DNA of 64,000 nucleotides from Streptomyces sp. NBC_01217 (GTDB lineage Bacteria; Actinomycetota; Actinomycetes; Streptomycetales; Streptomycetaceae), in contig NZ_CP108538.1 of assembly GCF_035994185.1 (NCBI RefSeq), positions 7,009,501 to 7,073,500 of the forward strand, read 5' to 3'. Shown here one piece after another: positions 7,757-55,200 of this stretch. A model generated the notes under the pieces. It worked only from the letters and a program-made list of their open reading frames with translations, did no database searches and was not told the origin of the DNA. Positions within the stretch are counted from its first letter, which is position 1; every line of letters begins with the position of its first letter. Position numbers and translations under genes: made by a program.

Positions 7757-7782
7757 GCCGGGGCGGGGGATCGGGAAAGAAA

Positions 7783-12380: not shown

Positions 12381-12438
12381 CCGGCGAACCCGCCGGGAAA
12401 TGAGTCCACACCGTTCGCAGACCATGAGGGGAGAGCTG

Positions 12439-14277
12439 ATGGAGAGCAACACGGCCACGTTGACACATGAGGTGTTTGCGGGGTGGGCGCGGGAGCGGCC
12501 GGATGGGGTGGCTGTGGTGTCGGGTGGGCGGTCGTTGTCTTTTGGTGAGGTGGATGCGTGGGCTGATCGTTTGGCGGGTGTGTTGCGGTCGGCTGGTGTG
12601 GGTCCTGAGGTGCGGGTGGGGGTGTGTCTGCCGCGGTCGGTGGAGTGGGTGGTTGCGGTGTTGGGGGTGTTGAAGTCGGGTGGTGCGTATGTGCCGTTGG
12701 ATCCGGAGTATCCGTCGGCGCGGTTGGAGTTCATGCTGTCGGACTCGGGTGCGGCTGTGGTGGTGGGTGCGGGGGAGGTTGCTGAGGGGCTGGGTGCGGT
12801 GTGCGGTGTGCCGGTGGTGGCGCCCGATGCCGAGGGAGGTGTGGAAGGTCCGGGTCCGGTGGCGGGGAATCTGGCGTACGTCATCTACACCTCGGGATCG
12901 ACCGGCCGGCCCAAGGGCGTCCAGATCACCCACGCCTCGCTGAGCAACGTCCTGGCCGGGTCCGCCGCCCCGCTGGAGGTCGGTCCGGGGCGGCGCACCC
13001 TGCAATGCGTGTCGTTCAGCTTCGACATCTCGGTCGTGGACACCCTGGCCACACTGACGAACGGCGGCACGCTCGTGATCGCGGCCAAGGAGGACGTCTC
13101 CTCGCCCGACCGGCTGGCCGCCCGGCTGCTGGACGAGCACATCCACACGGTCGTGCTGCCGCCCTCGATCCTCGCCACCCTGGTCGACCGGGAGTTCCCC
13201 GAGCTCGCCGTGGTGGTCTCCGGCGGTGAGGCGTGCCCGCCCAAGCTGGCGGCCTCGTTCGCCACCCGGCACCGGTTCGTCAATGGCTACGGCCCGACCG
13301 AGACCACGGTCGCCGCCTCTCTCTTCCCCGTCGCCCCGGAGCTCGGGGAGCTGGCCTCGGTGCCCATCGGCGCGGCCATGGAGGGGGTTTCGCTGTATCT
13401 CGCGGAGGAAGGGGCGGGCGCGGTCCCGCCCGGCGGCACCGGTGAGATCTGCATCGGCGGCGCGGGTGTCGCCCGCGGCTACCTCGACCGCCCGGCACTG
13501 ACCGCGGCGGCCTTCGTCCCTGACCCCTTCTCCGTGACACCGGGCTCCCGGATGTACCGCTCGGGAGACCTGGGCACGGTCCTGCCCGACGGCAATCTGG
13601 AGTTCCGCGGCCGCGCCGACCACCAGGTCAAGATACGCGGCCACCGGATCGAGCTGAACGAGATCGAACGGGCCCTGGAACGCCACCCGTCCGTCGCCCA
13701 GGCGGCGGTGGTGGTCAGCGAGTCCGGCCTCCTGGGCCGGCAGGTCCTCGCGTTCGTCGTACCCGTGCCGGGAGACTCCCCGGCGTCCGCCGTGCTCACA
13801 GGGGGACAGCTGCGGCGCAGCCTCTCCGACGACCTGCCCGACTACATGCTGCCGAACTCCATCACCCTGCTCGACGAGTTCCCGCTGACGGCCAACCGGA
13901 AGATCGACCGCGACGCCCTGATGTCCCGGGGCTCCTCCCCGCGGCGGCGCACCACGGAGCCCGTACCGCCGCGCACACCGGTCGAGAAGGACCTGGTGGA
14001 GATCTGGCAGGAGGTACTGGGACAGCCGGAGATCGGGACCCGGGACGACTTCTTCGAACTGGGCGGCCACTCGCTGCTCGCCGCCCAGGTGGTCGCCCGG
14101 ATCGAGAAGACCTACGGCGTGAACCTCTCGCTCCAGACGCTGCTGGCGAACGGGCGCACGGTCGCGGACCTGGCCGGGGCGGTCTCCCGGGCCGTGGCCG
14201 ACGGAGGAACCCAACGCCCGCGCATCACCCGAATCAAGCGCCAGGCCCGGCGCGCAGCGCCCGGGCAGCTCAGCTGA
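12439..14277 (+). CDS. Stand-alone NRPS A-T didomain (substrate unassigned)
   Basis: A 612-residue adenylation-thiolation didomain without a condensation domain. A3 ([14 protein letters not shown]) is near 148, and the T-domain serine is in FFELGGHSLL at about 545. The pocket residues read by eye are DIVVVGGVA plus Lys (A10 motif NRKID instead of the usual NGKID); I cannot assign an amino acid. The ATG at 12439 follows GAGGGGAGA; an ATG at 12400 has a poor ribosome site. Residues from about 11 to 168 are encoded by a G/T-skewed segment duplicated in the next gene. Such didomains often tether an amino acid for P450 beta-hydroxylation before transfer to the main line. A P450 and two type II thioesterases follow two to four genes downstream, which supports that reading without proving it. 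Confidence 0.88.
   Translation: MESNTATLTHEVFAGWARERPDGVAVVSGGRSLSFGEVDAWADRLAGVLRSAGVGPEVRVGVCLPRSVEWVVAVLGVLKSGGAYVPLDPEYPSARLEFMLSDSGAAVVVGAGEVAEGLGAVCGVPVVAPDAEGGVEGPGPVAGNLAYVIYTSGSTGRPKGVQITHASLSNVLAGSAAPLEVGPGRRTLQCVSFSFDISVVDTLATLTNGGTLVIAAKEDVSSPDRLAARLLDEHIHTVVLPPSILATLVDREFPELAVVVSGGEACPPKLAASFATRHRFVNGYGPTETTVAASLFPVAPELGELASVPIGAAMEGVSLYLAEEGAGAVPPGGTGEICIGGAGVARGYLDRPALTAAAFVPDPFSVTPGSRMYRSGDLGTVLPDGNLEFRGRADHQVKIRGHRIELNEIERALERHPSVAQAAVVVSESGLLGRQVLAFVVPVPGDSPASAVLTGGQLRRSLSDDLPDYMLPNSITLLDEFPLTANRKIDRDALMSRGSSPRRRTTEPVPPRTPVEKDLVEIWQEVLGQPEIGTRDDFFELGGHSLLAAQVVARIEKTYGVNLSLQTLLANGRTVADLAGAVSRAVADGGTQRPRITRIKRQARRAAPGQLS
12469..12941. repeat. G/T-skewed duplicated segment 1, copy A (GRINS-like)
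   Basis: This 473-bp segment is identical, as far as I can read, to 15703-16175. It encodes the N-terminal A subdomain from its first strand to just past motif A3. Codons end almost only in G or T, unlike the C-rich third positions of the sequence that follows. Confidence 0.9.
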
Positions 14278-14304
14278 CCGCCAACCAGATGTGGAGGAGT
14301 GGGC

Positions 14305-17300
14305 ATGGAGCTCACTGAGGATACTTTCGTCGTACCGGCGTCCTACGCCCAGCGGCGGTTGTGGTTTCTCGAGCAGATGGAGGGCGGCGGAGCTGCCTGG
14401 AACATCCAGGCGGTGCTCCGTCTGCGCGGCACCCTGGACACCGGCATGCTGCAGACGGCGGTGAACGCGGTCGTCCGGCGCCATGAGGCGCTGCGTACGA
14501 CCTTCGCCGCGGAGGACGGCGCCCCGGTCCAGGTGGTGTGGCCCTGGTCCGGCGTCGAGCTCCGGTCCGTGATGTGCGACGACAGCATCGATCCGGCGGC
14601 CGCCGCGGACGAGTGGCTGTCGCGGGAGTGGCAGCGGCCGTTCGACATCGAGGCCGGTCCGCTGTTCCGGGCCGCGTTGCTGCGCCTGGGCGAGCAGGAA
14701 CACCGGCTCGCCCTGGGCCTGCACCATCTCATCGCCGACGGCTGGTCGCTCCAGGTCCTCTACCAGGAGGTGATCGAGAACTACCGGCGTCTGCAGAGCG
14801 GGGAGCCGGCGCTCGGCGAGGACCTGGAGATCCAGTACCCGGACTTCTCCATGTGGGAGCGGGAGAACCTCACACCCGAGACGCTGGAGACGTCCATGGA
14901 GGTGTGGCGCCAGCGGCTGAAGGGCGCCGGGGACACGGTGGAGATCCCCGCCGACCGCCGCCGTACCCCGGACACGGTCGCCCGGGGAACCATGCTGCTC
15001 ACCACACTGCCGGGCGACCTGGTCGAGGACATCCGCGCGTTCGCGGCCGAGCGGGGCGCCACCGTGTTCATGGTGCTGCTGGCCGCCTTCGACACCCTGT
15101 TGCACCGGTACACCGGGCAGACCGACGTGATGGTGGGCGTCCCGGTGGCCAACCGCGCCCAGCCCGGGCTCGACGAGCTGATCGGCTGCTTCGTCAACAC
15201 CCTTGTCGTACGCGGCGACCTGGACGGCGACCCCAGCTTCGAGGAGCTGCTCACCCGGGTCCGCGAGGTGTCCCTGGAGGCGATCGAGCACCAGGAGGTG
15301 CCGCTGGAGTGGCTCGTGGAGGAGCTGCGCCCCGGCCGCGACCGGGCCAGGCAGCCCTTCTTCCAGGCGGTGCTGCATCTGGCGGAGGTGTCGCTCAGGA
15401 CCATCCGCCTCGACGGACTCACCGTCGACGTGGTGCGGATGGACACCCAGGCCCCGGGCGTCGACCTGGCGCTGACCCTGGTGGAGACCGAGACCGGGCT
15501 CGCCGCCGCCTGGGAGTACGACGCCGCCCTCTTCGACGGCGCGAGCATCGAGCGCATGCAGGCGCACTTCCGGACCCTGCTGGAAGCGGCCGTGGCGGAG
15601 CCCGCACTGCGCCTGTCGGAGCTGCGGATGCTCGGCGACGCCGAGCACGAGGAACTGGTGGCCCCCGGACCCGCCGCCGTACCCGACGCGCCCCTGCTGC
15701 ACGAGGTGTTTGCGGGGTGGGCGCGGGAGCGGCCGGATGGGGTGGCTGTGGTGTCGGGTGGGCGGTCGTTGTCTTTTGGTGAGGTGGATGCGTGGGCTGA
15801 TCGTTTGGCGGGTGTGTTGCGGTCGGCTGGTGTGGGTCCTGAGGTGCGGGTGGGGGTGTGTCTGCCGCGGTCGGTGGAGTGGGTGGTTGCGGTGTTGGGG
15901 GTGTTGAAGTCGGGTGGTGCGTATGTGCCGTTGGATCCGGAGTATCCGTCGGCGCGGTTGGAGTTCATGCTGTCGGACTCGGGTGCGGCTGTGGTGGTGG
16001 GTGCGGGGGAGGTTGCTGAGGGGCTGGGTGCGGTGTGCGGTGTGCCGGTGGTGGCGCCCGATGCCGAGGGAGGTGTGGAAGGTCCGGGTCCGGTGGCGGG
16101 GAATCTGGCGTACGTCATCTACACCTCGGGATCGACCGGCCGGCCCAAGGGCGTCCAGATCACCCACGCCTCGCTCGCCGGTGTCATGGCGGCGCAACGG
16201 GCGGGACTCCCGCTCGGCCCCGACGACGTCATGCTGCAGTTCTGCTCACCCAGCTTCGACGCCTCGATGTTCGAGATCGGCCTCGCCGTCGGCGCCGGAT
16301 CCGCCCTCGTGCTGGGGACCCGGGACGAACTCGTCCCCGGCGCGCCACTGGCCGCGCTGATGCGCCGGCACCAGGTCACCGCCTGGACGGCCCCGCCGTC
16401 CGCCATCGCCGCGACCGGGGCGGCGGACGTCCCGAGCCTGCGGGTCGTGATGGCCGGTGGCGAGGTGCTCACCACAGGGATGGTTCAGCACTGGACCGGC
16501 CAGGCGCGGTGCTTCAACCTCTACGGCCCCACCGAGGCGACGATCTACGCCACCGCCCACCGGGTACGGGCGTCCGGCGGCGAGGCGTCGCTGCCGATCG
16601 GAACCGCCATCCCCGGATACAGCGCCCTGGTCCTGGACGCCGAGTTGCGTCCGGTGCCCGCGAACGTCGTGGGTGAGCTGTACCTGGGCGGCGTCGGGAC
16701 GGCCCGTGGCTATCTCGGACGGCCCGGGCTCACCGCGGAGCGCTTCGTCCCCGACCCCCATTCCCGTGAACCCGGCAGCCGGCTCTACCGGACCGGTGAC
16801 CTGGCCCGCAGGCGGGCCGACGGGGAGCTGGAGTTCGTCGGACGGGCCGACGACCAGATCAAGATCCGCGGCTTCCGGGTCGAGCTCGGCGAGATCGAGT
16901 CCGTACTCACCGGCCACCCCGGCGTGCGCGAGTGCGCGGTCGTCGCCCGCGAGGACTCCCTGGGCGTCGTCGGGCTGACGGCCTGCGTGGTACGGGAGGC
17001 GAGCGAGGCGCCGGTGAGCGCACAGGAGCTGCGCGTCCATCTGGGCAGCAGGCTCCCCGAGCACTTCTCCCCGGCCGGTTACCTCTTCCTGGAGAGCCTG
17101 CCGTTCACCAGCAACGGCAAGGCCGACCGGGCCGCCCTGACCGCGCTGCTCGACGAGTCCGCCGAACGGCCGCGCATCGGCGCTACGGAGTACGAGGCGC
17201 CGCGGACCCCGCTGGAGGAGATGATCGCGGGCATCTGGCAGGAAGTGCTCGGCGTCGAACAGGTCGGTATCCACGACGACTTCTTCGAGAAGGGCGGGCA

Positions 17301-17457
17301 CTCCCTGCTCGCGGCACAGGTCATCGCACGGATCAGGGCGGCGACCGGCGTGGACGTGTCGGTACGGATGCTCTTCGAGCACCGGGTGCTGTCCGAGCTC
17401 ACCGAGGCGATCATGGAGTGCGCGCTCGACCGGGAGCAGCCGGACGGTGCCCGGTGA
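14305..17457 (+). CDS. NRPS module C-A-T (substrate unassigned)
   Basis: A 1050-residue single module. The C domain has an intact HHLIADG near 140, the A domain has A3 near 605, and the T-domain serine is in [10 protein letters not shown] near 1000. The pocket read by eye is DAFTMGLIY plus Lys, which matches no code I can assign confidently. The ATG at 14305 is preceded by GGAGGA with 6-nt spacing, better than the in-frame GTG six bases upstream. The A-domain N-terminal half (residues about 467-624) is the second copy of the G/T-skewed duplication, so this A domain shares an identical front half with the preceding A-T protein but has a different specificity core. Its stop overlaps the following thioesterase start (GTGA). 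Confidence 0.9.
15703..16175. repeat. G/T-skewed duplicated segment 1, copy B (GRINS-like)
   Basis: The second copy of 12469-12941, displaced by 3234 bp, roughly one module. Identity begins abruptly at GAGGTGTTTGCG and ends abruptly after CACGCCTCGCT, just downstream of A3. The flanking C-domain linker and specificity region are not shared. Confidence 0.9.
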
Positions 17458-28115: not shown

Positions 28116-28124
28116 GAGCATTCC

Positions 28125-29195: not shown

Positions 29196-29233
29196 CCGCC
29201 GATCGGTCACCGCAACCGCGGTAGGTCTCCCCG

Positions 29234-29270
29234 GCCCGTGGGCGAACCGCCTGCCGGTTCGCCCACGGGC
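29234..29270. terminator. Hairpin terminator after the O-methyltransferase
   Basis: A 16-bp perfect inverted repeat (29234-29249 with 29255-29270, core CCCGTGGGCGAACC) has a 5-nt loop and no U-tract, as is common in Streptomyces. It lies 38 bp past the methyltransferase stop and before the second MbtH gene, so it probably divides the rightward genes into two units. Confidence 0.7.
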
Positions 29271-29387
29271 AGCCCGCGCCCCCTTCCCGGCGCGCGCCCT
29301 TCTCATCGCCAAGAGCCGACGGGAATCCGACATGAACCGACCGAACACCCATCACCGCCGCCTGCCTGTGAGGACGGGAGCGGGCCG

Positions 29388-29603: not shown

Positions 29604-29699
29604 GACGCCGACAGCACCACAAGCAACAGTTCAGCGGTCGGCTCCCAGGCGCGGCCACCGCGACGAGACCATCCGGCCGTCCAGCCCGAGGAGCTGATC

Positions 29700-35900: not shown

Positions 35901-35938
35901 ACGCCGTCCCGATGGATCACGACCAGCAGGGGTGACCG

Positions 35939-36982: not shown

Positions 36983-37001
36983 GGCTGGGAGGCCGAGACA
37001 C

Positions 37002-40000
37002 GTGATCCCTCTGTCGTTTTCGCAGCTGCGGTTCTGGTTCCAGGACGAAATGGTCGACGGGAGCGAATCGCCCGTCGCCTCGCTCGCACTGCGCCTCACC
37101 GGCGCACTGGCCCCGGCGGCCCTGCGCGCTGCGCTGGGAGATGTCGTGACGCGACACGAGAGCCTGCGGACCGTCTTTCCCGCGACGGACGGAGTGCCTC
37201 AGCAGCTGATCCTTGGCGCGGAAAACGCGGCCGCACAACCTTTGTTGACAATGCATCAGGTCACGAAGGGCTCTCTTGAGCGGGCCGTTGCGGACACCGA
37301 GGCGCATGTCTTCGACCTCGCGCGGGAGACCCCGCTGCGGGCCGTACTGTTCGCCGCCGCACCCGATCACCACGTTCTGGTGGTCACCGTCCACCACATC
37401 GCCTTCGACGGCTGGTCCGTGACCCCGTTCCTCCACGATCTGTCCCACGCCTACCGGGCCCGGCTGGAGGGGCGGGCCCCGGCCTGGGACGAACTCCCCG
37501 TGCAGTACGCCGACTACACGCTGTGGCAGCGAGAGGTGCTGGGCGATCCGGAGGACCCGAAGAGCCTGTTCGCGCAGCAGCTCGACCACTGGCGGGGGAG
37601 GCTGGCCGAGCTGCCCGATGAGCTGGTCCTGCCGGCCGACCGCGCCCGTCCGGCGACCGCCTCGCGCCGGGCCGGAACGGTCCCCGTCCGTCTGGACCCG
37701 CACGTACACAGAGGCCTCGTCGAGTTGGCGCGTAAGCAGGAGGCCAGCCTGTTCATGGTGCTGCACGCCGGACTGGCGGGTGTGCTGCACCGGCTGGGTG
37801 CGGGTATGGACATTCCGGTGGGCAGCCCGGTCGCCGGGCGCACCGACGCCGGGTTGGAGGGCCTCATCGGCTGCTTCGTGAACACGGTGGTGATCCGCAC
37901 CGACACCTCCGGCGCCCCGTCCTTCCAGGAACTGCTGGGAAGGGTCCGCGGAGAGGTGCTGACCTCGTTGGAGCACCAGGACGTGCCCTTCGAGCAGGTC
38001 GTCGAAGCCGTCAACCCGAGACGTTCCGCCCGGCGGCACCCGTTGTTCCAGACCATGCTCAGCCTGCAGAACAACGCGGTCGCCACCGCCCGGTTTCCCG
38101 GCATCGGCATGGAGATGCTCGACATCGACGAGGTCGCGTCCGTCTCCTTCGATCTGCTCTTCGACCTGACCGAGGCCGACGGAGGGCTGGAAGGCCGGCT
38201 CATCTACGCCGAAGACCTCTTCGACGCCGCCACCGCCGAGCGCCTGGCCCGTTCCTACGAGCGCCTTCTGACACAGGCAGTGGCCTCCCCCCACCGGCCG
38301 ATCGGAGAGCTGGAGATCCTGTCCCCGTCCGACCGGCGGACGCTGCTCGAAGAATGGAACGGCCGCCCCCACCCCATTCCCTCCGGCTCCGTCGTGCACC
38401 GCTTCCGGGAACAGGTGGCCAGTGAGCCCGAAGCGGTCGCGGTCATCTGCGAGGACACCCGGCTGAGTTTCCGGGAGCTGGACGCGAGGGCGGATCGTCT
38501 CGCCCGGCAGCTGGTGCACCGGGGAGCCGGTCCCGAACGCCTGGTCGCGGTGGCGATGGAGCGTTCCGCCGGGCTGGTCGTCGCCATCCTGGCCGTTCTC
38601 AAGAGCGGCGCGGGCTACCTCCCGCTGGACCTGCGGAGTCCGGACACCCGTCTGCGTACCGTCCTGGAGGAGGCGCAACCCTGCCTCCTGCTCAGCGACG
38701 TACCCACCCAGGATCGGGCCACCACGCTGTCGCGGACGTACCACGGGGGCGCCCCGGTACTGCTCGCCGAAGAAGAAGCGTCGTCGCCCGAAGTGCTCAC
38801 GCCCGAAGTGCCCTTGCCCGAGGCCGAGGGGGAGCACGCGGCCTACGTGATGTACACCTCGGGGTCGACGGGACGGCCCAAGGGCGTCGTGGTGACCCAC
38901 CGCAACATCCTGGCCCTGGCGACCGACCCCTGCTGGGCGGGCAGTGGACACGACCGCGTACTCGCGCATGCACCGCACTCCTTCGACGCCTCCACCTATG
39001 AGCTGTGGGTGCCGTTGCTGAACGGCGGCACAGTGGTCCTGGTGCCGCCGGGCGACTCCGTGACGGAGGCGCTGGAGCGCACGGCTGCCGAACACGGCGC
39101 GACCGGCGCGTTCCTGACGGCGTCCCTGTTCGAGACCCTGGTCGCGGGCAAAAGCCCCGTCCTGAGCGGGCTGCGCGACGTGTGGGTGGGCGGGGAGGCG
39201 CCGTCGCCCGCGGCCGTGCGCCGGATGCGCGAGGAGTTCCCGGACACCGTGCTGACCAACGGCTACGGACCCACCGAGAACACCACCTTCACCACCTGCG
39301 CGCGCCTGGACCGGACCGGCGGCTCGGAGGGGACTCCGCCGATCGGCCGTCCGATGTCGAATACGCGGGTGTATGTGTTGGATGGGGGGTTGTTGCCGGT
39401 TCCGGTGGGTGTGGTGGGTGAGTTGTATGTGGGTGGTTCGGGTGTTGCTCGGGGGTATGTGGGTTTGCCGGGTGTGACGGCTGAGCGGTTTGTGGCGGAT
39501 CCGTTTGGTGGGGCGGGGGAGCGGTTGTATCGGACGGGGGATCTGGTGCGGTGGGTGGAGGGGGGTGTTCTGGTTTTTGTGGGGCGTGTTGATGATCAGG
39601 TGAAGGTGCGGGGTTTTCGGGTGGAGTTGGGTGAGGTGGAGTCGGTTCTGGGTGGTCATGGGTCGGTGGGGCGTTGTGTTGTGGTGTTGCGTGAGGTGCG
39701 GCCGGGTGAGTGTCGGTTGGTGGCGTATGTGGTGCCGGTGGGTTCGGGTGTGGTGGAGGGGTTGGAGCGGGAGCTTTCTGTGTGGGTGGGGGAGGTGTTG
39801 CCGGATTACATGGTGCCGGTTGTTGTGGTGGTGTCTGGTGGGTTGCCTTTGACGGTGAATGGGAAGGTGGACCGGGCGGCGTTGCCTGTTCCGGGGTTTG
39901 CGGCGCTTGCGGGTTCGCGGTTGCCGGGTACGCCGGTGGAGTCGTTGTTGTGTGAGCTGTTCGCCGAGATCCTGGGGCTGCCCCGGGTGGGCGTCGACGA

Positions 40001-43000
40001 CAACTTCTTCGACCTCGGAGGTCATTCGCTGCTGGCCGTCCGGCTGCTGAACCGGCTGCGTTCGACGCTGAGCACCGAGGTCGTCATGCATGCGATCTTC
40101 GAGGCGCCCACACCGGCCGCACTCGCCGCCCGGCTCACGGAATCGGGAATCCGCCGAGTGCCGCTGCGGCGCCGGACGCGGCCCGCGGCCCTGCCGCTCT
40201 CGTACGCACAGCTGCGGTTCTGGTTCCAGGCGGCCGCGTCCGACGGCGGTGAGTCACCCGCCATCACGACCGTGCTCCGGTTCTCCGGGCCACTCGACTC
40301 CGCCGCTCTGCGAAGGGCGCTGCAGGACGTGGTGACACGGCACGAGAGCCTGCGGTCCGTCTTCCCCGTGGTGGACGGCACACCCGGGCAACTGATCCTG
40401 GACCCGGACGCCACAGCCGCGTACATCCATCTCGCCACACGGCACGTGAAGGACGAGGAAGTCGCCCGGGCCGTGGCGGCGGACTCGGAACGTCCCTTCG
40501 ATCTCGCGCACGAGATCCCGCTGCGGGCTGCGCTCCTCGCCGAAGGCTCCGGCGACCACCTGCTCGTACTGACGATTCATCACATAGCCTTTGACGGCTG
40601 GTCGGCGGGGCCCTTCAGCCGGGATCTGCGCACGGCCTACGAGTCCAGGCTTGCGGGTCGGCCCCCCGAGTGGGTCGAACTTCCGGTCCAGTACGCGGAT
40701 TTCACGCTCTGGCAACGGGAACTGCTGGGCGTACCGGAGGATGCGGACAGCCTCTTTGCGCAACAACTGAACCACTGGAAACAGTCGTTGGCAGACCTGC
40801 CCGAAGAACTGTCCCTCCCGGCCGACCGACCACGTCCGGGCATCGCGTCGCACCGCGCGGGCGCCGTGGCACTGCGGCTGGACCCCGACAGTCACCGGCA
40901 GCTGACCGCACTCGCCCGGAAGGAGGGGGCGAGCCTGTTCATGGTGTTGCACGCCGCTCTGGCGGGCCTGCTGCTCCGCTGGGGGGCGGGCACGGACCTT
41001 CCGGTGGGCAGCCCCGTCGCCGGACGCACGGACGAGGCGATGGACGACCTCGTCGGCTGCTTCCTCAATACCGTCGTCATCCGGACCGACACAACGGGTG
41101 CCCCGTCCCTCACCGAGTTGATCCGCCGGGTACGGGAAGTGGTGCTCACCGGCCTGGCGAACCAGGACGTACCTTTCGAGCGCGTGGTGGAAGCCGTCAA
41201 CCCGTCACGGTCCGCGGCACGGCACCCGCTGTTCCAGGTGATGCTCAGCCTCCAGAACAACGAGGCCGCGTCCAACGGGCTGCCCGGCTCGACCGTGGAG
41301 CCGGTGGACGACGGCCGCTGTCCGCCCATGCCCTTCGATCTGCTCTTCGATCTGGCCGAGGCGGACGGCGGGCTGGAGGGTCTGCTCCATTACGCCGAGG
41401 ACCTCTTCGACCGGGCCACGGCCGAACGCCTGGTGTGCCAATTCGAAAACTTCCTGGTCCGGGCCGCCTCCGCCCCCTCGCGCCCGTTCGGGGAACTGGA
41501 GTTCCTGCCCGCGCAGGAGAGGCGCACGGTCCTCGAAGCGGGCATCGGTCCCGTACGGGAGGTGGCGGCGGAACCGTTCCCCACGTGGTTTCGCAGGCAA
41601 GCGGCCCGGACGCCCGACGCGACCGCGGTGCTGTGCGGCGACACGGCTCTCACCTATGCGGAGCTGAACACGCGCTCCAACCGCCTGGCACGGTGCCTGA
41701 TCGCGCACGGTGCGCGGCCCGACCGGCTCGTCGCGGTGGCCCTGGAACGCTCCGTCGACCTGCTCGTAGCCGTGCTGGCCGTGCACAAGACCGGGGCCGC
41801 CCATCTCCCCGTCGACCCGAGGCACCCGGAACATCGGGTCCACACGGTGCTCTCGGACGCCGAACCCGACCTGGTGCTCTCCGATCTCGCCGGCCGTGCC
41901 GCGCTCGGCGACGACAGCTGGCTCGCCCTGGACGACCCCCGGACCTCCGCCGCACTGGAGAGTCTGCCGGACCGGGACCTGGGCGCCGATGAGATACCCG
42001 GCCCCTTCGCTCCCGACAGCCCGGCCTACGTGACCTACACCTCGGGATCGACGGGGCGGCCGAAGGGCGTCGTCGTCACCCATCGAAACCTCGCCAACCT
42101 GCTGGACGCGATGCGCGAGCGGCTGCCCCTGCTCGCGGGGGACCGGCTGCTCGCCGTCACGACCGTCACGTTCGACATCGCCCACCTCGAACTCCTGCTG
42201 CCGCTCAGCACCGGCGCCTGTGTCGTCATCGCCTCCCACGACGACGTCAGGGACCCCCTCGTGCTCGGCAGGCTCATCGAGAAGCACTCGGTCACCGCGA
42301 TGCAGGCGACTCCCTCCCTCTGGGCGGGCCTGGTGGAAGGAGCCCCGCAGGCACTGGAAGGACTGCGGATCCTGGTGGGCGGCGAGGCGCTGCCGGCCAG
42401 GCTCGCGGGCGACCTGTGCGCTCTGGCCGCGGAGGTGACGAATGTCTACGGTCCGACCGAGACCACCATCTGGTCGACCGCGGCTCGCATCGACCCGAAG
42501 AAGGCGCGCATCGACCGGGAGGACCTGGTCGGCCCGCCGATCGGCCGTCCGATGTCGAATACGCGGGTGTATGTGTTGGATGGGGGGTTGTTGCCGGTTC
42601 CGGTGGGTGTGGTGGGTGAGTTGTATGTGGGTGGTTCGGGTGTTGCTCGGGGGTATGTGGGTTTGCCGGGTGTGACGGCTGAGCGGTTTGTGGCGGATCC
42701 GTTTGGTGGGGCGGGGGAGCGGTTGTATCGGACGGGGGATCTGGTGCGGTGGGTGGAGGGGGGTGTTCTGGTTTTTGTGGGGCGTGTTGATGATCAGGTG
42801 AAGGTGCGGGGTTTTCGGGTGGAGTTGGGTGAGGTGGAGTCGGTTCTGGGTGGTCATGGGTCGGTGGGGCGTTGTGTTGTGGTGTTGCGTGAGGTGCGGC
42901 CGGGTGAGTGTCGGCTGGTGGCGTATGTGGTGCCGGTGGGTTCGGGTGTGGTGGAGGGGTTGGAGCGGGAGCTTTCTGTGTGGGTGGGGGAGGTGTTGCC

Positions 43001-44783
43001 GGATTACATGGTGCCGGTTGTTGTGGTGGTGTCTGGTGGGTTGCCTTTGACGGTGAATGGGAAGGTGGACCGGGCGGCGTTGCCTGTTCCGGGGTTTGCG
43101 GCGCTTGCGGGTTCGCGGTTGCCGGGTACGCCGGTGGAGTCGTTGTTGTGTGAGCTGTTCGCCGAGATCCTGGGGCTGCCCCGGGTCGGTGTCGACGACA
43201 ACTTCTTCGACCTCGGAGGCGACAGCATCGTCTCCATCCGTCTGGTGGCCCGTGCACGGGCCCGGGGCCTGGTGGTCTCCGCGCGCGATGTCTTCCGCTA
43301 CAGGACGGTCGCCGCGCTGGCCGGGCATGTGCGCGAGCGGACCCCCAAGCCGGCCGGAGCGGCGCAGGCGAAGGCCGTGGCCATGGACAGGAGCGACCCC
43401 ATCACGCTCACCCCAATCATCCAGTGGCAGCGCGACCGCGGCGGACCGGTCGACGGATTCCATCAGTCGGTGCTCGTGCGGACCCCGGCGGACCTGCGGA
43501 TACCGGAGCTGCGCAAGGTCCTTCAGACTTTGCTCGACCGCCACGACGCTCTGCGCATACGGCTGGAACGGAAGCCGGACTGGCGGCTCGACATACTGCC
43601 GCGCGGCACCCTGTCGGCGGGCGGACTTCTCGTACGCGTCGATGTCGCCGAACGCTCCGCCGCCGAACTGCCGCGGATCATCCGCGCGGAGACCGAGACC
43701 GCGCGAGCACGCCTCGCACCGGGCTCCGGACACATGGTCCAGGCCGTGTGGTTCGACGCGGGACGAGGACACTCGGGCCGGCTCCTCCTGATGATCAACC
43801 ACCTCGTCGTGGACGGGGTCTCCTGGCGCGTACTCCTGCAGGGACTGCGCACCGTGTGGCAGTCCCAATCCGGGGCGCGGACTCCCCCCGACAAGGCGGC
43901 GGACTCCTCGTCAGCCTCCGCCTCCTCCTCCGCCACCTCCTTCGGGGAGTGGAGCAGGATCCTGAAGCGGAACGCGCTCGAACGGTCCGGCGAGCTTGCC
44001 TTCTGGACCGGACTCGTCGAGGACACCGGCGATCTCGTCGAGGGTGTCGCCCTCGCCGCCGAACGCGATGTCCTGCGTACACAGGGAAAGGTCACCCGCG
44101 TCCTGCCCGCGGACCACACGGAGAGCCTGCTGACACGGGTGCCGACCGCGATGGGCACCGGCATCAACGCCGTCCTGCTCGCCGCGCTGGGCGAGGCGAT
44201 CCGGCGCTGGCGCACCCGGCACTTCCCGGCCTGCACCGCACCGTTCCTGGTCGATGTGGAGGGACACGGACGGGAGGAGATCGCCGACGACCTCGATCTG
44301 TCCACGACCGTCGGCTGGTTCACCAGCATGTTCCCCGTACGTCTCGAAAGCCGGGCGGACGCCCCGGCGGACGCCGCGCGGGCCATCGAGGACCGGCTCG
44401 CCGCCATGCCGGACAAGGGACTCGGCTACGGACTGCTGCGCTACCTCAACCCGGACACCGCGCCGACGCTCAGCAAACTTCCCCGGGCACAGGTCCTCTT
44501 CAACTACCTCGGCCGGTTCGACCGCCCGGACGGCACCGACTGGGGACTCGCTCCGGAGGCCGAAGCGGTCGGCGGTGGTGGCGATCCCGATCTGCCGCTC
44601 ACCCATCTCCTGGAGATCTCCGCGATCGCCATGAACCAGGACAACGGGCCGGAGCTGCACGTCACATGGGCCTACCCCACCACCCACCTCGGACACGCAC
44701 AGGTCGAAGAACTCGCCGACGAGTGGATCGCCGCCCTGAAGACATTCGTCACCGGTGCACACCAGAGGGGAGAGAGCGCATGA
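37002..44783 (+). CDS. NRPS C-A-T-C-A-T-E: valine-like residue, then glycine with epimerase domain
   Basis: A 2593-residue bimodular synthetase. Domains are C1 (HHIAFDG near 132), A1 (A3 near 616), T1 ([10 protein letters not shown] near 1007), C2 (HHIAFDG near 1193), A2 (A3 near 1677), T2 ([10 protein letters not shown] near 2072) and E (about 2130-2580). A1 pocket by eye is DAYFWGGTF plus Lys, close to valine codes. A2 pocket is DILQLGVIW plus Lys, a glycine code. The E domain keeps [28 protein letters not shown] and FNYLGRFD, with NHLVVDG where HHxxxDG is usual. T2 has the GGDS form typical before E domains. An E domain after a glycine A domain is odd. Both A domains share a near-identical G/T-skewed C-terminal part. 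GTG start with GGGAGG 9 nt upstream. Confidence 0.92.
39336..39988. repeat. G/T-skewed duplicated segment 2, copy A (GRINS-like)
   Basis: A 653-bp segment repeated at 42534-43186 with one synonymous difference (T at 39717, C at 42915). It covers A-domain motifs from the IGRP(M)SNT turn through A10 and the start of the T domain. Base counts for 39421-39480 are G 30, T 20, C 6, A 4, against C 24, G 15, T 11, A 10 in the upstream stretch 38041-38100 of the same gene. Confidence 0.92.
42534..43186. repeat. G/T-skewed duplicated segment 2, copy B (GRINS-like)
   Basis: The second copy of 39336-39988, 3198 bp downstream in the same gene. Homology continues with two more changes to the FFDLGG motif of the T domain. 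There copy A runs into GGHSLL and copy B into GGDSIV. Confidence 0.92.
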
Positions 44784-48682: not shown

Positions 48683-50424
48683 GCGCCTCCGGTATCGTCC
48701 GGCTGCCCCGCCAGGTCGCCGATGCCCATGTGGACGAGCTTGTCGCCCTCGACCCGGTACTCGGGACGACGCTCGGCGCGAAGGAGAGTTCCGCACGGCT
48801 CCCCGATTTCTCTCCCGAGGGAGCCCAAGGACTCGCGGATCTGGCCCGCCGCACACTCGGCCGGCTCGAAGGGGCCGAACGCGCACCGGGGGCCGACAGC
48901 GCGGTGGAGAGACGCTGTGCGCGTCTGTTGCGGGAGAGGCTCGACGCCGGACTGGCCCTGCACGAGGCCGGGGAACACCTGCGCACGGTGGGCAACATGA
49001 GCACCCCCGTGCACGCCGTGCGCAGGGCCTTCACACTGATGCCGGCCGGCACCGAGGAGGACTGGGCGGCGATCGGCGAACGCCTGCGGACCGTACCCAC
49101 CGCACTCGCGGGCTACCGCACCTCACTGGAATCCGGTCTGAGCCACAAGCAGCACGGAGCACCGGGCCCGACCGCCGCACTCATCGGGCAGCTCACCGAG
49201 TGGACATCCGGGCCCCGCCCCAATACGCGGAACACACCTCGCCGGGGGTGGTTCGAGGAGTTCGTCACGGACGGCCCCGTACGGCTGCGCGCCGGGCTCG
49301 GCTCCGCGGCCCGCGAGGCCACCGAAGCGGTCGTCGGACTGCGCGACTGGCTCCGCGACGTCTACGCACCGGCTGTCGCGGGCACGCCCGACACCGTGGG
49401 CCGCGAGCGCTACGCCCGCTGGGCACGCCACCACACCGGCACGGACCTCGATCTGGACGAGGCCTACGCGTACGGCTGGTCGGAATACCACCGCATCCAC
49501 AGTGAGATGAGAGCAGCGGCCGGTGATGTGCTGCCCGGAGCCGCGACACCCTGGGCGGCCCTGAAGCACCTGGACGAGCACGGCGCGCATGTGGACGGCG
49601 TCGATGCCGTGCGGTCCTGGCTCCAGGAACTGATGGACGAAACCATCGCCGCCGTCGACGGCACCCACTTCGAACTCGCCGACCGCTTACGCAGGGTGGA
49701 GTCCCGCATCGCCCCGCCGGGCAGCGCCGCGGCCCCGTACTACACACCGCCGTCGCAGGACTTCTCCCGTCCCGGCCGCACCTGGCTGCCGACCATGGGC
49801 GAGAACCGCTTCCCCGTGTACGACCTGGTGTCCACCTGGTATCACGAAGGCGTACCCGGCCACCATCTGCAGCTCGCCCAGTGGGTGCATGTCGCCGATG
49901 AACTCTCCCGCTACCAGACCTCGGTGGGCATGGTCAGTGCCAACTGCGAGGGCTGGGCGCTCTATGCCGAGCGGCTGATGGACGAGCTCGGCTTCCTCAC
50001 CGACGCGGAGCGCAGACTCGGCTACCTGGACAGCCAGATGATGCGCGCCCTTCGCGTGATCGTGGACATCGGAATGCACCTGGGCCTGAGAATTCCCCCG
50101 GATTCCCCCTTCCGCCCCGGTGAGCGCTGGACCCCCGGCCTCGCCAGGGAATTCTTCGGCCGGCACAGCAGCAGGCCCGATGAATTCATCGACAGTGAGC
50201 TGACCCGCTATCTCTCCAGGCCCGCACAGGCCATCGGCTACAAACTCGGTGAACGGGCCTGGCTGCTCGGCCGCGAGAACGCCCGCCGCGCACAAGGCCC
50301 GGCGTTCGACGCGAAAGCCTGGCACATGGCGGCACTCTCGATGGGAAATCTCGGCCTGGGCGATCTGGTGGACGAACTGTCAATGATCCAGCCGGACCGT
50401 GGGAACGAGGTGGAGGCGCCATGA
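48679..50424 (+). CDS. DUF885-family zinc metallopeptidase-like protein
   Basis: A 581-residue, mostly helical protein of the DUF885 type. Its metal site is the HEGVPGHH motif (His389, Glu390, His396 region), with a downstream [11 protein letters not shown] segment carrying the likely third ligand. There is no signal peptide or membrane segment, so it is probably cytoplasmic. It is translationally coupled on both sides (ATGA with the terminal NRPS and again with the following A-T gene), so it belongs to the operon rather than being a bystander. Peptidase-like zinc chemistry is the family expectation. Removal of a protecting residue or leader, or cleavage of the peptide in self-defence, would fit, but nothing in the sequence settles it. 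Confidence 0.78.
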
Positions 50425-52292
50425 CCGAACGGCTGCCTGAGCGGTGTGGGTATGAGTTTGTCGGGGATTGGGTGGGTGGGGGTGGGGTTGCGTTGGTGGG
50501 GGAGGGGGTGGAGTGGTCGTACGGGGAGTTGGGTCGGCGTGTGGGTGTGTTGGCGGGGGTGTTGCGGGGGTGGGGTGTTGGTCCTGAGGTGAGGGTGGGG
50601 GTGTGTTTGGGGCGGGGTGTTGATGTGGTGGTGGCGGTGTTGGGGGTGTGGCGGGCTGGGGGTGTGGTGGTTCCGTTGGATCCGGGTTATCCGGTGGGGC
50701 GGTTGGGTTTCATGGTGGGGGATGCGGTGCCTGGTGTGGTGGTGACGTCGGGGTGTTGGGTGGGGCGATTGCCGGTGGGTTGTGGTGTGGTGTTGGTGGA
50801 GGAGGTGGACTGGTCGTCGGGTGAGGTGTTCTCGGGTGATGCGGGTGTGGTTCCGGCGAATGCCGCGTACGTGGTGTACACCTCGGGATCGACGGGCCGG
50901 CCCAAGGGCGTCGTCGTACCGCACCGCGGACTGGGCGCCGTGGTCACCGAACAGCGGCGCCGCTTCGGAATCCGCCGTGAGGACCGGGTGCTGTCCTTCT
51001 CCTCGCCGAGCTTCGACGCCTGGATCTTCGAACTGCTCCTCGCCTTCGGTTCCGGAGCCTGCCTCTGCACGCTGCCCTGGCCCGAGCCCGATCTGCTCCG
51101 GCTCGCCGGTCATTTGCGACGCACCGGAGTGACCGCGGCGATGTTCCCGCCCGCCGCCCTGTCCGTCCTGGAGGGCGAGGACCTGCCCGACCTGCGGATC
51201 ATCATGGTCACCGGAGAAGTCTGCCCGCCCGCCGTGGCCCGCAGATGGGCCTTCGAGCGGGCCTTCTACAACTGCTACGGGCCGACCGAGACCACCATCT
51301 GGGCCGCCTGCCACGGCCCCCACGACCAACCCGACCACCCCGACGGGGCCTCGGTGCCCATCGGCACCCCGGTCGCAGGCGTCCGGGCACATGTGCTCGA
51401 CGAGCAGGGCCGCCCGGTGGCCCATGGGGAGAGCGGCGAACTCTGCGTCGGCGGTGGCGTCGTCACCCGGGGATACCTCGGGCAGCCCGGGCTGACGGCC
51501 GAGCGCTTCGTCCCCGATCCGTTCGCCGGGGAGCCGGGCGCCCGGATGTACCGGACCGGCGACCGGGTCCGGTGGGACGACGAAGGACGGCTCCGCTTCG
51601 GCGGCCGCCTCGACCGGCAGGTGCAGATCCGCGGCTTCCGCGTCGAACCCGCCGAAGTGGAGGCCCGGCTGCGCGCCCTGCCCGGAGTCGAGGACGCAGC
51701 CGTGGTCGCCCACGGAGACGTCGAGGACAGCAGCGGAATCCGGCTGGCCGCGTTCGCCGTCCCCACCGCGGCGGTTGACGGCCTGCCGCAGCAGCTGATC
51801 ACCGCACTCGCGGCGGAGCTGCCGTCCCACATGGTCCCCGAAACCATCGTCCTGCTCGGCGAGTTGCCGCGCACGGTCAACGGGAAGACCGATCAGGAAG
51901 CGCTGCGCACGAGAGCGGCACGGACGGCGCGCACATCCGGCCGGGAGCCGGGGCGGACGGACACCCCGGCCACGGACACCGAACGGACCTTGGCCGGCAT
52001 CTGGCAGGAACTCTTCGCCCGTGACGGGCTCGGCGCCGGCGCCGACTTCTTCGAACTGGGCGGGCATTCCCTGATCGCCGCCCGCTGCGCGGCACGGGTA
52101 CGGACCCGGCTGGCGGTGGAGCTGACACCGCGCGACATCTACGACGCTCCCGTACTGCGCGATCTGGCCGCTGTCGTCGACGGCCTCGGCCGCGGCCCGT
52201 TCGCCGCCCGGGCCCGCACCATCCCCCGCGCCCCGCGCGAGGGATTCCGCCGTGACCTGCCCAACGACAGCAAGGAGTCCCCCGAGCGATGA
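50421..52292 (+). CDS. Stand-alone NRPS A-T didomain (substrate unassigned)
   Basis: A 623-residue A-T protein with A3 ([14 protein letters not shown]) near 151, the A10 lysine in TVNGKTDQ, and the T-domain serine in FFELGGHSLI near 550. The pocket read by eye is DAFMMTCIW plus Lys, not an amino-acid code I know. The front of the A domain is unusually short and Gly/Val-rich because it is encoded by a G/T-skewed repeat shared with the next gene. The ATG overlaps the DUF885 stop. With no C domain it must pass its residue to another protein; the adjacent C-A-T protein is the obvious partner. It could equally hold an amino acid while the downstream cassette modifies it. Confidence 0.87.
   Translation: MTERLPERCGYEFVGDWVGGGGVALVGEGVEWSYGELGRRVGVLAGVLRGWGVGPEVRVGVCLGRGVDVVVAVLGVWRAGGVVVPLDPGYPVGRLGFMVGDAVPGVVVTSGCWVGRLPVGCGVVLVEEVDWSSGEVFSGDAGVVPANAAYVVYTSGSTGRPKGVVVPHRGLGAVVTEQRRRFGIRREDRVLSFSSPSFDAWIFELLLAFGSGACLCTLPWPEPDLLRLAGHLRRTGVTAAMFPPAALSVLEGEDLPDLRIIMVTGEVCPPAVARRWAFERAFYNCYGPTETTIWAACHGPHDQPDHPDGASVPIGTPVAGVRAHVLDEQGRPVAHGESGELCVGGGVVTRGYLGQPGLTAERFVPDPFAGEPGARMYRTGDRVRWDDEGRLRFGGRLDRQVQIRGFRVEPAEVEARLRALPGVEDAAVVAHGDVEDSSGIRLAAFAVPTAAVDGLPQQLITALAAELPSHMVPETIVLLGELPRTVNGKTDQEALRTRAARTARTSGREPGRTDTPATDTERTLAGIWQELFARDGLGAGADFFELGGHSLIAARCAARVRTRLAVELTPRDIYDAPVLRDLAAVVDGLGRGPFAARARTIPRAPREGFRRDLPNDSKESPER
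50435..50905. repeat. G/T-skewed duplicated segment 3, copy A (GRINS-like)
   Basis: A 471-bp segment repeated at 53689-54165. The copies differ by one 6-bp indel near 50475 and one synonymous base (A at 50768, G at 54028). It encodes the A-domain N-terminal part up to motif A3 and ends within the PKG codons. Confidence 0.9.
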
Positions 52293-55200
52293 ACAGCACC
52301 GCAGCCCCGCTCGGCCGCAGCGCCTACGTCATGCCCGCCTCCTTCGCGCAGGAGCGCATGTGGATGATCGAGCAGATGGAGGACGACGCCCCGGACTACA
52401 ACATCCAGATGGGCCTCCGTTTCACCGGTCCGCTGGACACCCCGGTGCTGGAACGCGCCATGACGGAGGTCTTCGCACGGCACGACGTACTGCGCACCAC
52501 GTTCACCACCGAGAACGAACGCCTCTTCCAGGTGATCTCCCCGGCCAGCTCGCCCGTGCACATCGAACACGTCGACCTCACGGACGCCCGCGACCCCGAG
52601 GCGGAACTGCACAGGTTCCGGCTGCGGGAACTGCGCAGCCCCTTCGATCTGGAGCGCGGACCACTGGTGCGGAACTACCTGGTCAAGGTGGCCGAGCAGA
52701 GCAGTGTCCTGCTCATGGTGATGGACCACATCGTGGGCGACGCATGGTCCCAGCGTGTGCTCCAGAACGAACTCGCCACACTGCACCGCGCGTTCCTGCG
52801 CGGCGAACCCAGCCCGCTCCCCGACCTGGCGATCCAGTACGCCGACTACGCGATCTGGCAGCGGGAGCAGCTGGACAGCGGCGAGCTCGACGGACAGATC
52901 GCCTTCTGGCGCCGCAAGCTCGGCGAGAACCCGCCGCAACGAGTCGACCTCCGCGCCGAGCCCGGACGGCGCCAGGGACGTCACGGCGATCTGCGCTTCC
53001 CGCTCCCGCTCGATCTCATGGAGAGGACCGACGCCTGGGCCCGCGGCGAAGGAGCATCGCTCAACGCCGCGCTGCTGGCCCTGTTCAGCCTGCTGCTCGC
53101 CGGACGCAGCGGCCTGCGCGACCTCGCCGTCGGCAACCTGACCAGCAACCGACCGCAGCCGGAGCTGGAGGAGCTGATCGGATTCTTCGTCAACTGCGTC
53201 GTCCTGCGCCTGGATCTCTCCGGCGACCCGAGCCTGCGCGAACTGACCCTGCGCTCCAGGAACACGGCCCTCGAAGCCTACGCACACCAGGAGGTCCCCT
53301 TCGAGCGCGTGGTCGAGGAGCTCCACCCCGTCCGAGAACCCGGCCGGCAGCCGCTGTGCGATGTGATGTTCCAGCTCAGCGACGTGGACATCGAAACGGT
53401 CCGCTACGAGGGGCTCGATGTGGCGGTCCTGCCCGTGGAGAGTGCCCCCGCACCGATCGACCTTCTGCTGTCCGTGATGAAGGAGGGCGGGCAGTACGAG
53501 GCCGTCTGGGACTACGACACCGACCTGCTCGACGCGGCCACCATCACCCGTCTGCAACAGGGGTTCGAGGAGCTGCTGCACCTGCTGGCCGCCGACCCCG
53601 AGGTCCGGATCGGCGAGCTGGACGCGATGGGATCCGCCGAACGCAGCTTGCTCCTCGACGACTTGAGCGGTCGCGGCATTCCCGCCGAGCCTGAGCGGTG
53701 TGGGTATGAGTTTGTCGGGGATTGGGTGGGTGTGGGTGAGGGTGGGGTTGCGTTGGTGGGGGAGGGGGTGGAGTGGTCGTACGGGGAGTTGGGTCGGCGT
53801 GTGGGTGTGTTGGCGGGGGTGTTGCGGGGGTGGGGTGTTGGTCCTGAGGTGAGGGTGGGGGTGTGTTTGGGGCGGGGTGTTGATGTGGTGGTGGCGGTGT
53901 TGGGGGTGTGGCGGGCTGGGGGTGTGGTGGTTCCGTTGGATCCGGGTTATCCGGTGGGGCGGTTGGGTTTCATGGTGGGGGATGCGGTGCCTGGTGTGGT
54001 GGTGACGTCGGGGTGTTGGGTGGGGCGGTTGCCGGTGGGTTGTGGTGTGGTGTTGGTGGAGGAGGTGGACTGGTCGTCGGGTGAGGTGTTCTCGGGTGAT
54101 GCGGGTGTGGTTCCGGCGAATGCCGCGTACGTGGTGTACACCTCGGGATCGACGGGCCGGCCCAAAGGTGTTGTCGTATCGCACCGCGGACTGGGCGGAC
54201 TGGTGGCCGAGGCCGCGACACGCTTCGGCGTCACCACCGACGACCGCGTCCTGTCCTTCTCCTCGCCGAGCTTCGACGCCTGGATCTACGAGCTGTTCAT
54301 CGCGCTCGCGCACGGGGCGCGGCTGTGCGTGCCGCCCGTGAGCGAGGAGACCGGCGCGGTGCTGCTCGAAGAGCTGCCGGACTGGCTCCGTGCCCAGCAC
54401 GTCACCGTGGCGACACTGCCGCCCTCCCTGCTCGCGGCATGGACGGACGAGGACCTCCCCGAACTCCGCGTGCTGTCATCCGTGGGCGAGACCTGCGCCC
54501 CGGCCGTCGCCGAGCACTGGTCCCGGGGGCGGGTGCTCGTCAACGGCTACGGACCGACCGAGACCACCGTCGGCGCCACCCACCACCGCATCACCGAGGG
54601 ACCGGTCGGATCCCATATCCCGATCGGCACGCCGTTCCCCGGCACCCGGGTCTACGTACTGGACGCCGAGACACGCCTGGTGCCGCACGGCGTGGCGGGC
54701 GAGCTGTGCGTCGGAGGGCCCGCGGTGGCGCGCGGATACGGCGGCCGGCCGGGCCTGACGGCCGAGCGCTTCGTGCCCGATCCGTTCGCCGGGGAGCCGG
54801 GTGCCCGGATGTACCGGACCGGCGACCGGGTCTGGTGGGACGACGAAGGACGGCTCTGCTTCGGCGGCCGCCTCGACCGGCAGGTGCAGATCCGCGGCTT
54901 CCGCGTCGAACCCGCCGAGGTCGAAGCCGTACTGACCCGCTGTCCGGAGATTTCCGAGGCTGTCGTCGTCCCCCGCGAGGACGCCGCAGGCGGGCGGGAA
55001 CTGGTGGCCTTCGTGACCGCCGCGCCGCACCGTACCGCCGAACCGGAAAAGCTCCGTGAGGCATGCGGCGAGGCGCTCCCGGCGCCCTGGATCCCCGCAC
55101 GGATCACCGTTCTCGACACGCTGCCACGACTGCCCAACGGCAAGACCGACCGCGACCTGCTGGCCGGTACCGGCCCGGTGGCCGAGCCGGAGCACCGGGA

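What the first reader, a model, noticed from the sequence alone, without database searches (positions are those of the whole stretch)
12469..54165. All three repeat pairs avoid the specificity pocket: a possible subdomain-swap engine in an NRPS cluster
Pairs 1 and 3 stop just after A3; pair 2 starts after the last pocket residues. The segment that determines the substrate is always left divergent between identical flanks. Copies lie 3.2-3.26 kb apart, about one module. This would let homologous recombination exchange pocket cores without disturbing domain interfaces. GRINS were described mainly for PKSs, so a clean NRPS case with such boundaries is worth attention.
Basis: inference. Interest (0 to 1): 0.82.

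Follow-up and report, generated by a model that had tools for sequence, protein, structure and literature searches.

The report
Copied flanks around NRPS selectivity pockets
In this peptide-antibiotic gene cluster, pieces of neighbouring enzyme modules that flank the amino-acid-selecting pocket keep being copied over one another while the pockets stay in place, and the copied pieces have a lopsided base make-up whose direction follows chromosome replication.

Summary
The repeats are real. Pair 1 is 473 nt without mismatch, pair 2 is 653 nt with one, pair 3 about 470 nt with two and a 6-nt indel. All three exclude the selectivity pocket. Only pair 3 has near-identical DNA on both sides of a divergent core.

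The six copies carry strong positive GC and TA skew. They meet the identity and skew criteria of GRINS, but are short and not in a PKS.

Relatives show the opposite of core swapping. Cores match their positional orthologues (pair 1, 9 of 9 other genomes; pair 2, 6 of 6 other clusters; pair 3, 2 of 2 proteins), while flanks are homogenised within genomes, independently in several lineages. In 27 other NRPS loci with such tracts the pocket is under-covered (p about 0.001), yet 9 of 27 touch it.

Unexpected: the orthologous tract in Micromonospora LH3U1 has mirror-image skew. In 36 of 40 genomes with strongly skewed NRPS/PKS segments the sign follows replication (leading strand G+T-rich), head-on genes included. 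Agreement rises from 54% of bases at weak skew to 98.5% at strong skew. I found no statement of this in the held papers searched; the founding GRINS paper was not available.

The parts
12400..14277 (+). g2: stand-alone A-T gene (no C domain); carries copy 1 of pair 1
   Evidence: Pfam AMP-binding, AMP-binding_C, PP-binding
14299..17457 (+). g3: C-A-T gene; carries copy 2 of pair 1
   Evidence: Pfam
12469..12941 (+). Pair 1 copy 1: N flank of A domain, from A-domain start to just after A3; GC skew +0.43, TA skew +0.49
15703..16175 (+). Pair 1 copy 2, identical to copy 1
12942..13400 (+). g2 pocket core, GC skew near 0; orthologous by position in 9 other genomes
16176..16630 (+). g3 pocket core, GC skew near 0; orthologous by position in 9 other genomes
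37002..44783 (+). g7: C-A-T-C-A-T-E; carries both copies of pair 2
   Evidence: Pfam; epimerisation-type reading of the last domain from motifs and the GGDSI carrier
39336..39988 (+). Pair 2 copy 1: C flank, from after the pocket through the A subdomain to the T domain; GC skew +0.54, TA skew +0.59
42534..43186 (+). Pair 2 copy 2
38856..39335 (+). g7a A3 to pocket core, GC skew about 0; nearest relatives are positional orthologues
42039..42533 (+). g7b A3 to pocket core, GC skew about 0; nearest relatives are positional orthologues
50421..52292 (+). g9: stand-alone A-T gene; carries copy 1 of pair 3
   Evidence: Pfam
52289..55459 (+). g10: C-A-T gene; carries copy 2 of pair 3
   Evidence: Pfam
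50435..50905 (+). Pair 3 copy 1: N flank; GC skew +0.64, TA skew +0.61
53689..54165 (+). Pair 3 copy 2; GC skew +0.64, TA skew +0.61
51472..51655 (+). Pair 3 second patch (around A7), 94.6% identical to 54735-54918, no skew
54735..54918 (+). Pair 3 second patch, other copy

Best explanation
The repeats are tracts of recurrent intragenic gene conversion (concerted evolution) between neighbouring modules. They behave like GRINS, but in NRPS adenylation domains.

SHOWN by comparison: the parts of the A domain before A3 or after A5 are homogenised with the neighbour's copy, independently in different genomes, while the pocket core stays with its own module. In many of the copied tracts A and C have been replaced by G and T on one strand. 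The strand that becomes G+T-rich is, in most genomes, the replication leading strand, whichever way the gene is transcribed.

INFERRED: conversions that overwrite the pocket are removed by selection because the module would then load the wrong amino acid. The outer ends sit where homology between the two modules ends. The skew comes from a replication-coupled, strand-biased mutation process. One candidate is repair of single-strand gaps on the lagging-strand template, by switching to the paralogous module and by error-prone synthesis.

The net effect is upkeep of alike domain interfaces, not exchange of specificities.
For: Pair 2, seven module pairs counting the window: core identity within a cluster 0.45-0.50; window cores to positional orthologues 0.71-0.75. 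C flank and A subdomain are 0.99-1.00 within the window and within G290, both strongly skewed, but 0.82-0.83 and 0.71 between the two; the other five clusters are unskewed at 0.71-0.81. Pair 1, the window and nine others: core within pair 0.28-0.35, orthologous core 0.72-0.84. N flank within pair, nine measurable including the window: 1.00 (window), 0.99, 0.96, 0.94, 0.91, 0.87, 0.77, 0.70, 0.59, against 0.51-0.78 to the window's orthologue; within exceeds between in 7 of 9. DNA of LH3U1: the same tract (profile 2-173) in two runs 99.7% and 99.2% identical (N flank 0.97 overall), skew -0.34/-0.33. Pair 3: g9 against g10 N flank 0.99, but 0.87-0.88 to two other strains. The six copies are the GC-skew >= +0.30 runs of the NRPS genes, apart from one run that overlaps the first 58 nt of g1. 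Substitutions at sites conserved in five orthologues: C>G 0.37, C>T 0.29, A>G 0.23, A>T 0.11, reverse changes at most 0.024; core control roughly balanced. P(repeat|skewed) 0.34 against 0.020. Polarity.
Against: No conversion event was seen directly; ancestors are inferred. Two of nine pair-1 genomes show no N-flank homogenisation beyond the orthologue level (Salinispora 0.59, GD-15H 0.70), and five of seven pair-2 clusters show none. Homogenised tracts without skew are common (62% of repeat bases are skewed), so skew is not required. 66% of skewed bases had no >=90% copy in the DNA fetched. Polarity exceptions: G015, G171, G184 and G208 of 40. Skewed tracts alone do not spare the pocket significantly.
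Confidence: 0.85

Rival explanations
1. Subdomain-swap engine: the identical flanks are landing sites through which pocket cores are exchanged between modules.
For: Core exchange between A2/A3 and A5/A6 is a documented mode of NRPS evolution (Baunach 2021, passages; Booth 2022, passages). Pair 3, and L025 A1 against A3 in another cluster, have near-identical DNA on both sides of a divergent core. P0015 (NPDC059534) is an A-T protein with a g2-like N-terminus joined to a g3-type core, C flank and A subdomain (0.94/0.95/0.91 to P0014), as a crossover in the N flank would give.
Against: Cores match their positional orthologues in 9 of 9 (pair 1), 6 of 6 (pair 2) and 2 of 2 (pair 3) comparisons with the window. 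Pairs 1 and 2 have only one identical flank. P0015 looks like a direct-repeat deletion that loses a module, and could be an assembly artefact.
Confidence: 0.07
2. Recent whole-module duplication followed by rapid divergence or replacement of everything except the tracts.
For: Copies lie about one module apart. g9 and g10 are each other's nearest relatives in core (0.51) and C flank (0.80) among the A domains compared.
Against: g2/g3 and g7a/g7b are separate lineages in each relative examined, with flanks homogenised to different sequences in different genomes. Boundaries of pair 1 and the start of pair 2 are sharp to the base.
Confidence: 0.05
3. Skew set by transcription or by protein composition (V/G-rich), not by replication; homogenisation is then a side effect of low complexity.
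For: The window tracts are co-directional; the pair 1 N flank is 35% V+G, and changes such as L>V, A>V, R>G are the commonest in the pair 2 tract.
Against: Head-on genes carry the opposite coding-strand skew: LH3U1; the 8.73-Mb NRPS of the window's own genome, G294 and G064; 9 of 10 head-on PKS genomes with segments. Third codon positions are the most extreme (window pair 2: G 0.67, C 0.04, A 0.00, T 0.29).
Confidence: 0.08
4. Assembly artefact: identical flanks produced by mis-assembly.
For: Repeats of 0.5 kb can mislead short-read assemblies.
Against: The genome is in 2 contigs with completeness 100. The two copies of pairs 2 and 3 differ by single bases and an indel. The same tracts recur in other genomes.
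Confidence: 0.02

Closest known systems
[quoted passage not shown] Nivina et al. 2021, not held; known here through passages of PMC10394414, PMC9899208 and PMC11907408)
   Same: Near-identical intragenic repeats in an assembly line with GC and TA skew above 25%, linked to gene conversion.
   Different: NRPS A domains, not PKS; 0.47-0.65 kb rather than about 1 kb; inner ends lie either side of the pocket; both skew polarities are seen at the same orthologous tract.
Concerted evolution of NRPS/PKS domains (Medema et al. 2014, PMC4256081, passages)
   Same: Domains of one cluster resemble each other more than their orthologues; reported for A domains and most C domains of the CDA/daptomycin/A54145 group.
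   Different: Here it acts on sub-domain tracts and leaves the pocket core evolving by position.
A-core subdomain recombination (Baunach 2021, PMC8097286; Booth 2022, PMC9205934; passages)
   Same: Similar boundaries, around A2/A3 and A5/A6.
   Different: In those cases the core is imported and the flanks stay. Here the flanks are copied and the core stays.
Replication-strand composition skew of bacterial chromosomes (general knowledge, recalled)
   Same: Leading strand rich in G and T.
   Different: Here it is local and extreme, in partly repeated tracts of assembly-line genes, with little preference at weak skew (54% of bases at threshold 0.10).

Membership tests
GRINS | Over 80-90% identity to another region of the same assembly line | tested here: met
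   99.6-100% over ungapped columns in all three pairs; pair 3 also has a 6-nt indel
GRINS | GC and TA skew both above 25% (or above 0.15 in absolute value in the azalomycin method) | tested here: met
   +0.43..+0.64 and +0.49..+0.61 in all six copies; the second patch of pair 3 fails
GRINS | Length about 1 kb (at least 500 bp in the azalomycin method) | tested here: not met
   Pairs 1 and 3 are 471-477 nt; only pair 2 (653 nt) exceeds 500; length criteria from passages
GRINS | Located in an assembly-line PKS | tested here: not met
   All copies lie in NRPS A domains, pair 2 reaching the T domain
GRINS | Associated with gene conversion | tested here: met
   Within-genome identity above orthologue identity in the tracts but not in the cores; inferred from comparison, no event observed
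A-core subdomain swap | Near-identical DNA on both sides of a divergent core | tested here: not met
   True only for pair 3; pairs 1 and 2 one-sided
A-core subdomain swap | Core closer to another module or cluster than to its positional orthologue | tested here: not met
   Cores follow position in 9/9, 6/6 and 2/2 comparisons with the window
Concerted evolution of NRPS domains | Paralogous tracts more alike within a genome than between orthologues | tested here: met
   Window and G290 for pair 2 (2 of 7 clusters); 7 of 9 genomes for pair 1 and the window for pair 3

The most novel reading that the evidence does not exclude
The intense skew of GRINS-type tracts in NRPS and PKS genes is written by the replication fork. 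Tracts that undergo module-to-module conversion suffer a one-strand A,C to G,T sweep on the leading strand (the lagging-strand template), so the same orthologous tract is G+T-rich in a co-directional genome and C+A-rich in a head-on one. Selection on the pocket then carves out where conversion can spread.
Probability: 0.7. Interest if true: 0.75.

Novelty: new variant of a known kind. Interest (0 to 1): 0.6.

Why it matters
It corrects the direction of the inference for engineers. In the relatives examined, nature keeps the pocket and re-copies the interfaces, so homogenised flanks mark interchangeable interfaces rather than past pocket swaps. The polarity rule gives the origin of GRINS, which from memory was called unknown by its describers, a concrete handle: skew sign is predictable from gene orientation relative to the origin, so replication-coupled models can be tested against transcription-coupled ones in a laboratory Streptomyces.

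Tried and rejected
Core swapping was rejected after the orthologue tests. The idea that only skewed tracts spare the pocket was rejected: among skewed-only tracts the depletion is not significant (11 loci, p = 0.16), while it is for unskewed ones (21 loci, p = 0.002). Clustering of upstream tract ends at A3 was not significant (p = 0.18). In the first survey table three hits (L017, L020, L028) were artefacts of A domains split by a methyltransferase insert and compared with themselves; I removed them by requiring copies at least 600 nt apart. No other genome of 392 sampled from the genus had a g2 match at E <= 1e-150, and the best match outside the window's own genome among 394 of the class was 5.9e-124; 3 of 160 genomes of the genus of L060 (Micromonospora arborensis) had an orthologue. 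Pocket codes were only read by eye from the alignment with recalled GrsA numbering; they differ within each pair (g7b resembles the glycine code, recalled), and no substrate is claimed. A PDB alignment did not print 1AMU. My first co-directional/head-on sorting of the PKS loci used longest ORFs and misplaced L234 and L244; one search repeats it with the strand of the AT hit, and the report uses. No structure was predicted.
Full report
WHAT IS THERE. Pfam scans give an NRPS region: g1 C-A-T 7753-11136; an MFS gene; g2 A-T 12400-14277; g3 C-A-T 14299-17457; thioesterase, P450 and TauD-type ORFs; g4 A-T; g5 C-A-T-C-T; an O-methyltransferase; g6 A-T-C-A-MT-T; a luciferase-like monooxygenase 35939-36982; g7 C-A-T-C-A-T-E 37002-44783; g8 C-A-T-TE; a DUF885 protein; g9 A-T 50421-52292; g10 C-A-T 52289-55459.

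THE REPEATS. Exact 30-mer chaining and base-by-base comparison give the coordinates in the parts list. Identity in 60-nt windows falls from about 1.0 to mostly 0.4-0.8 at the ends. In profile coordinates (A3 at 150, A4 at 194, A5 at 287) the tracts cover 3-167, 312-527 and 1-158. Only pair 3 has a second patch past the core (351-411), and its A3-A4 region decays gradually (0.80, 0.77, 0.72) rather than ending sharply.

SKEW. In 150-nt windows there are eight runs of GC skew >= +0.30. Six coincide with the six copies; two lie at 7371-7810, the second overlapping the first 58 nt of g1. Negative runs are weaker (to -0.33) and not at the repeats. Copies have GC skew +0.43 to +0.64 and TA skew +0.49 to +0.61; cores have GC skew -0.08 to +0.01. 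Third codon positions of the pair 2 tract are G 0.67, C 0.04, A 0.00, T 0.29, against G 0.38, C 0.56, A 0.03, T 0.03 in ten unskewed orthologous modules.

WHO MOVED? Six homologous clusters carry the g7a/g7b pair (four genomes; Streptomyces sp. TSRI0281 and S. hydrogenans). In all six the cores match the window's by position (0.71-0.75 nt identity), and in all seven clusters the two cores of one cluster differ (0.45-0.50). Only in the window and G290 is the C flank homogenised (0.99-1.00) and skewed, and the two genomes' versions differ (0.82-0.83, 0.71). For pair 1, a protein search (only 7994 candidates scored, best 120 listed) gave nine other g2/g3 pairs from Streptomyces, Micromonospora, Salinispora and one JGI contig. 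I paired them by organism name and equal contig length, not by reading the DNA, except LH3U1; cores 0.28-0.35 within pair, 0.72-0.84 to the window's orthologue; N flanks up to 0.99 within pair, 0.51-0.78 to the window's. S. polyrhachis has a partial g2 and gives no within-pair N value. Of the nine measurable pairs including the window, seven are more alike within than between. For pair 3 two proteins stood out in the list (P0122 of S. avidinii, P0124 of NPDC059534); both keep the g9- or g10-type core (0.90, 0.76). So flanks are copied and cores stay.

IS POCKET-SPARING GENERAL? In 163 further loci (60 chosen by C-domain hits, 80 by a monooxygenase, 10 from the same genome, 13 chosen by similarity to the pair 2 tract) 27 have near-identical A-domain tracts (>=150 nt, >=95%). 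Mean pocket coverage is 0.110 against 0.254 for random rotation (p = 0.0011); 0.099 against 0.226 (p = 0.0105) in the 20 loci not chosen by the tract. Several loci look homologous to each other, so the p values are optimistic. In 9 of 27 loci a tract touches pocket positions. For skewed tracts alone the depletion is not significant (11 loci, p = 0.16).

THE MIRROR IMAGE. The other two genomes of that search have N-flank identity 0.84 and 0.82 and GC skew -0.13 to -0.20. LH3U1's dnaA lies at 1 kb and the tracts at 4.63 Mb of 7.09 Mb on the + strand, that is head-on if termination is opposite the origin. The window's tracts are co-directional (dnaA 4.57 Mb, tracts 7.02-7.06 Mb, + strand).

POLARITY TEST. 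Skewed segments are >=300 nt with GC and TA skew both >=0.28 in the same direction. NRPS-region loci: 18 of 19 genomes with such segments agree with 'leading strand G+T-rich', G015 being the exception; G019 (contig 1.6 Mb, dnaA not sought) also had a segment and was not counted. Head-on genes, by the strand of homology hits, in G000 (another NRPS at 8.73 Mb, where two 350-nt segments disagree), G294, G064 and G908 follow replication, not coding. An independent PKS set (40 loci) sorted by the strand of the AT hit: co-directional 15 of 17 genomes with segments (of 20; 47,840 bp against 1,050), head-on 9 of 10 (of 14; 42,900 bp against 7,020; G171 the exception). Pooled, the fraction of bases agreeing rises with the skew threshold: 0.539 at 0.10, 0.676 at 0.15, 0.806 at 0.20, 0.937 at 0.28, 0.966 at 0.35, 0.985 at 0.45; at 0.28, 36 of 40 genomes, the exceptions being G015, G171, G184 and G208. 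Limits: replichores are set by dnaA alone, and chromosomes are treated as circular only where dnaA is near a contig end; some genomes are probably close relatives (G031 and G154 look alike).

MECHANISM. Shown by comparison: recurrent homogenisation of flanks; strand-biased A,C to G,T substitution in the pair 2 tract; sign following fork direction. Inferred: selection against pocket conversion; lesion or gap repair on the lagging-strand template as the common source of conversion and mutation. Skew and repetition are associated (P(repeat|skewed) 0.34 against 0.020; 17 of 18 genomes enriched) but separable.

LITERATURE. Seen as passages only: Booth 2022, Baunach 2021, Medema 2014, PMC10394414, PMC9899208, PMC11907408, PMC11537254. 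Concerted evolution of NRPS domains, A-core recombination and shared skew in duplicated NRPS genes are in print. A full-text search for 'intense nucleotide skews' found 3 papers, all on PKSs. A search for GRINS, 'leading strand' and polyketide listed ten of 197 papers, none holding both GRINS and 'leading strand'. The founding GRINS paper is not held, so priority on polarity is open; from memory its abstract calls the mechanism unknown and mentions other gene families.

CHECK. 

Noticed in passing
G000:C1:8725001-8760000 (L121, L122): Another NRPS of the same genome, transcribed head-on, has long repeats (1059 nt at 0.999, 1169 nt at 1.0) and mostly C/A-rich coding strands, the opposite polarity to the window cluster.
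   Followed up: partly
window 7753-28115 and 50421-55459 against 29700-48682: The cluster may be composite: g6-g8 find positional orthologues in the homologous clusters, whereas the best relatives of g1-g5 and g9-g10 lie in other loci.
   Followed up: partly
protein P0015 (Streptomyces sp. NPDC059534): A-T protein with a g2-like start and a g3-type core, consistent with a deletion between the two N-flank repeats; an assembly artefact is not excluded.
   Followed up: partly
window 44790-44845: Short repeat of 9-nt period just after the end of g7 at 44783 (seen as shared 30-mers at offsets 9 and 18).
   Followed up: no
window 43152-44783: The epimerisation-type domain reads [10 protein letters not shown] where HHxxxDG is usual (recalled), and follows an A domain whose pocket, read by eye, resembles a glycine code.
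   Followed up: no
window 55511-61161: U32-peptidase-like, aldehyde-dehydrogenase, hydroxyethylthiazole-kinase-like, ATP-grasp and aminotransferase genes follow g10; they may belong to a separate pathway.
   Followed up: no
window 62090-62944: DDE_3 transposase-type ORF on the minus strand beyond the cluster.
   Followed up: no
L132 (G197:C1:7163488-7183487): Several A domains of one NRPS share skewed flanks (profile about 2-163 and 311-428) with no tract over the pocket; a good second case.
   Followed up: partly
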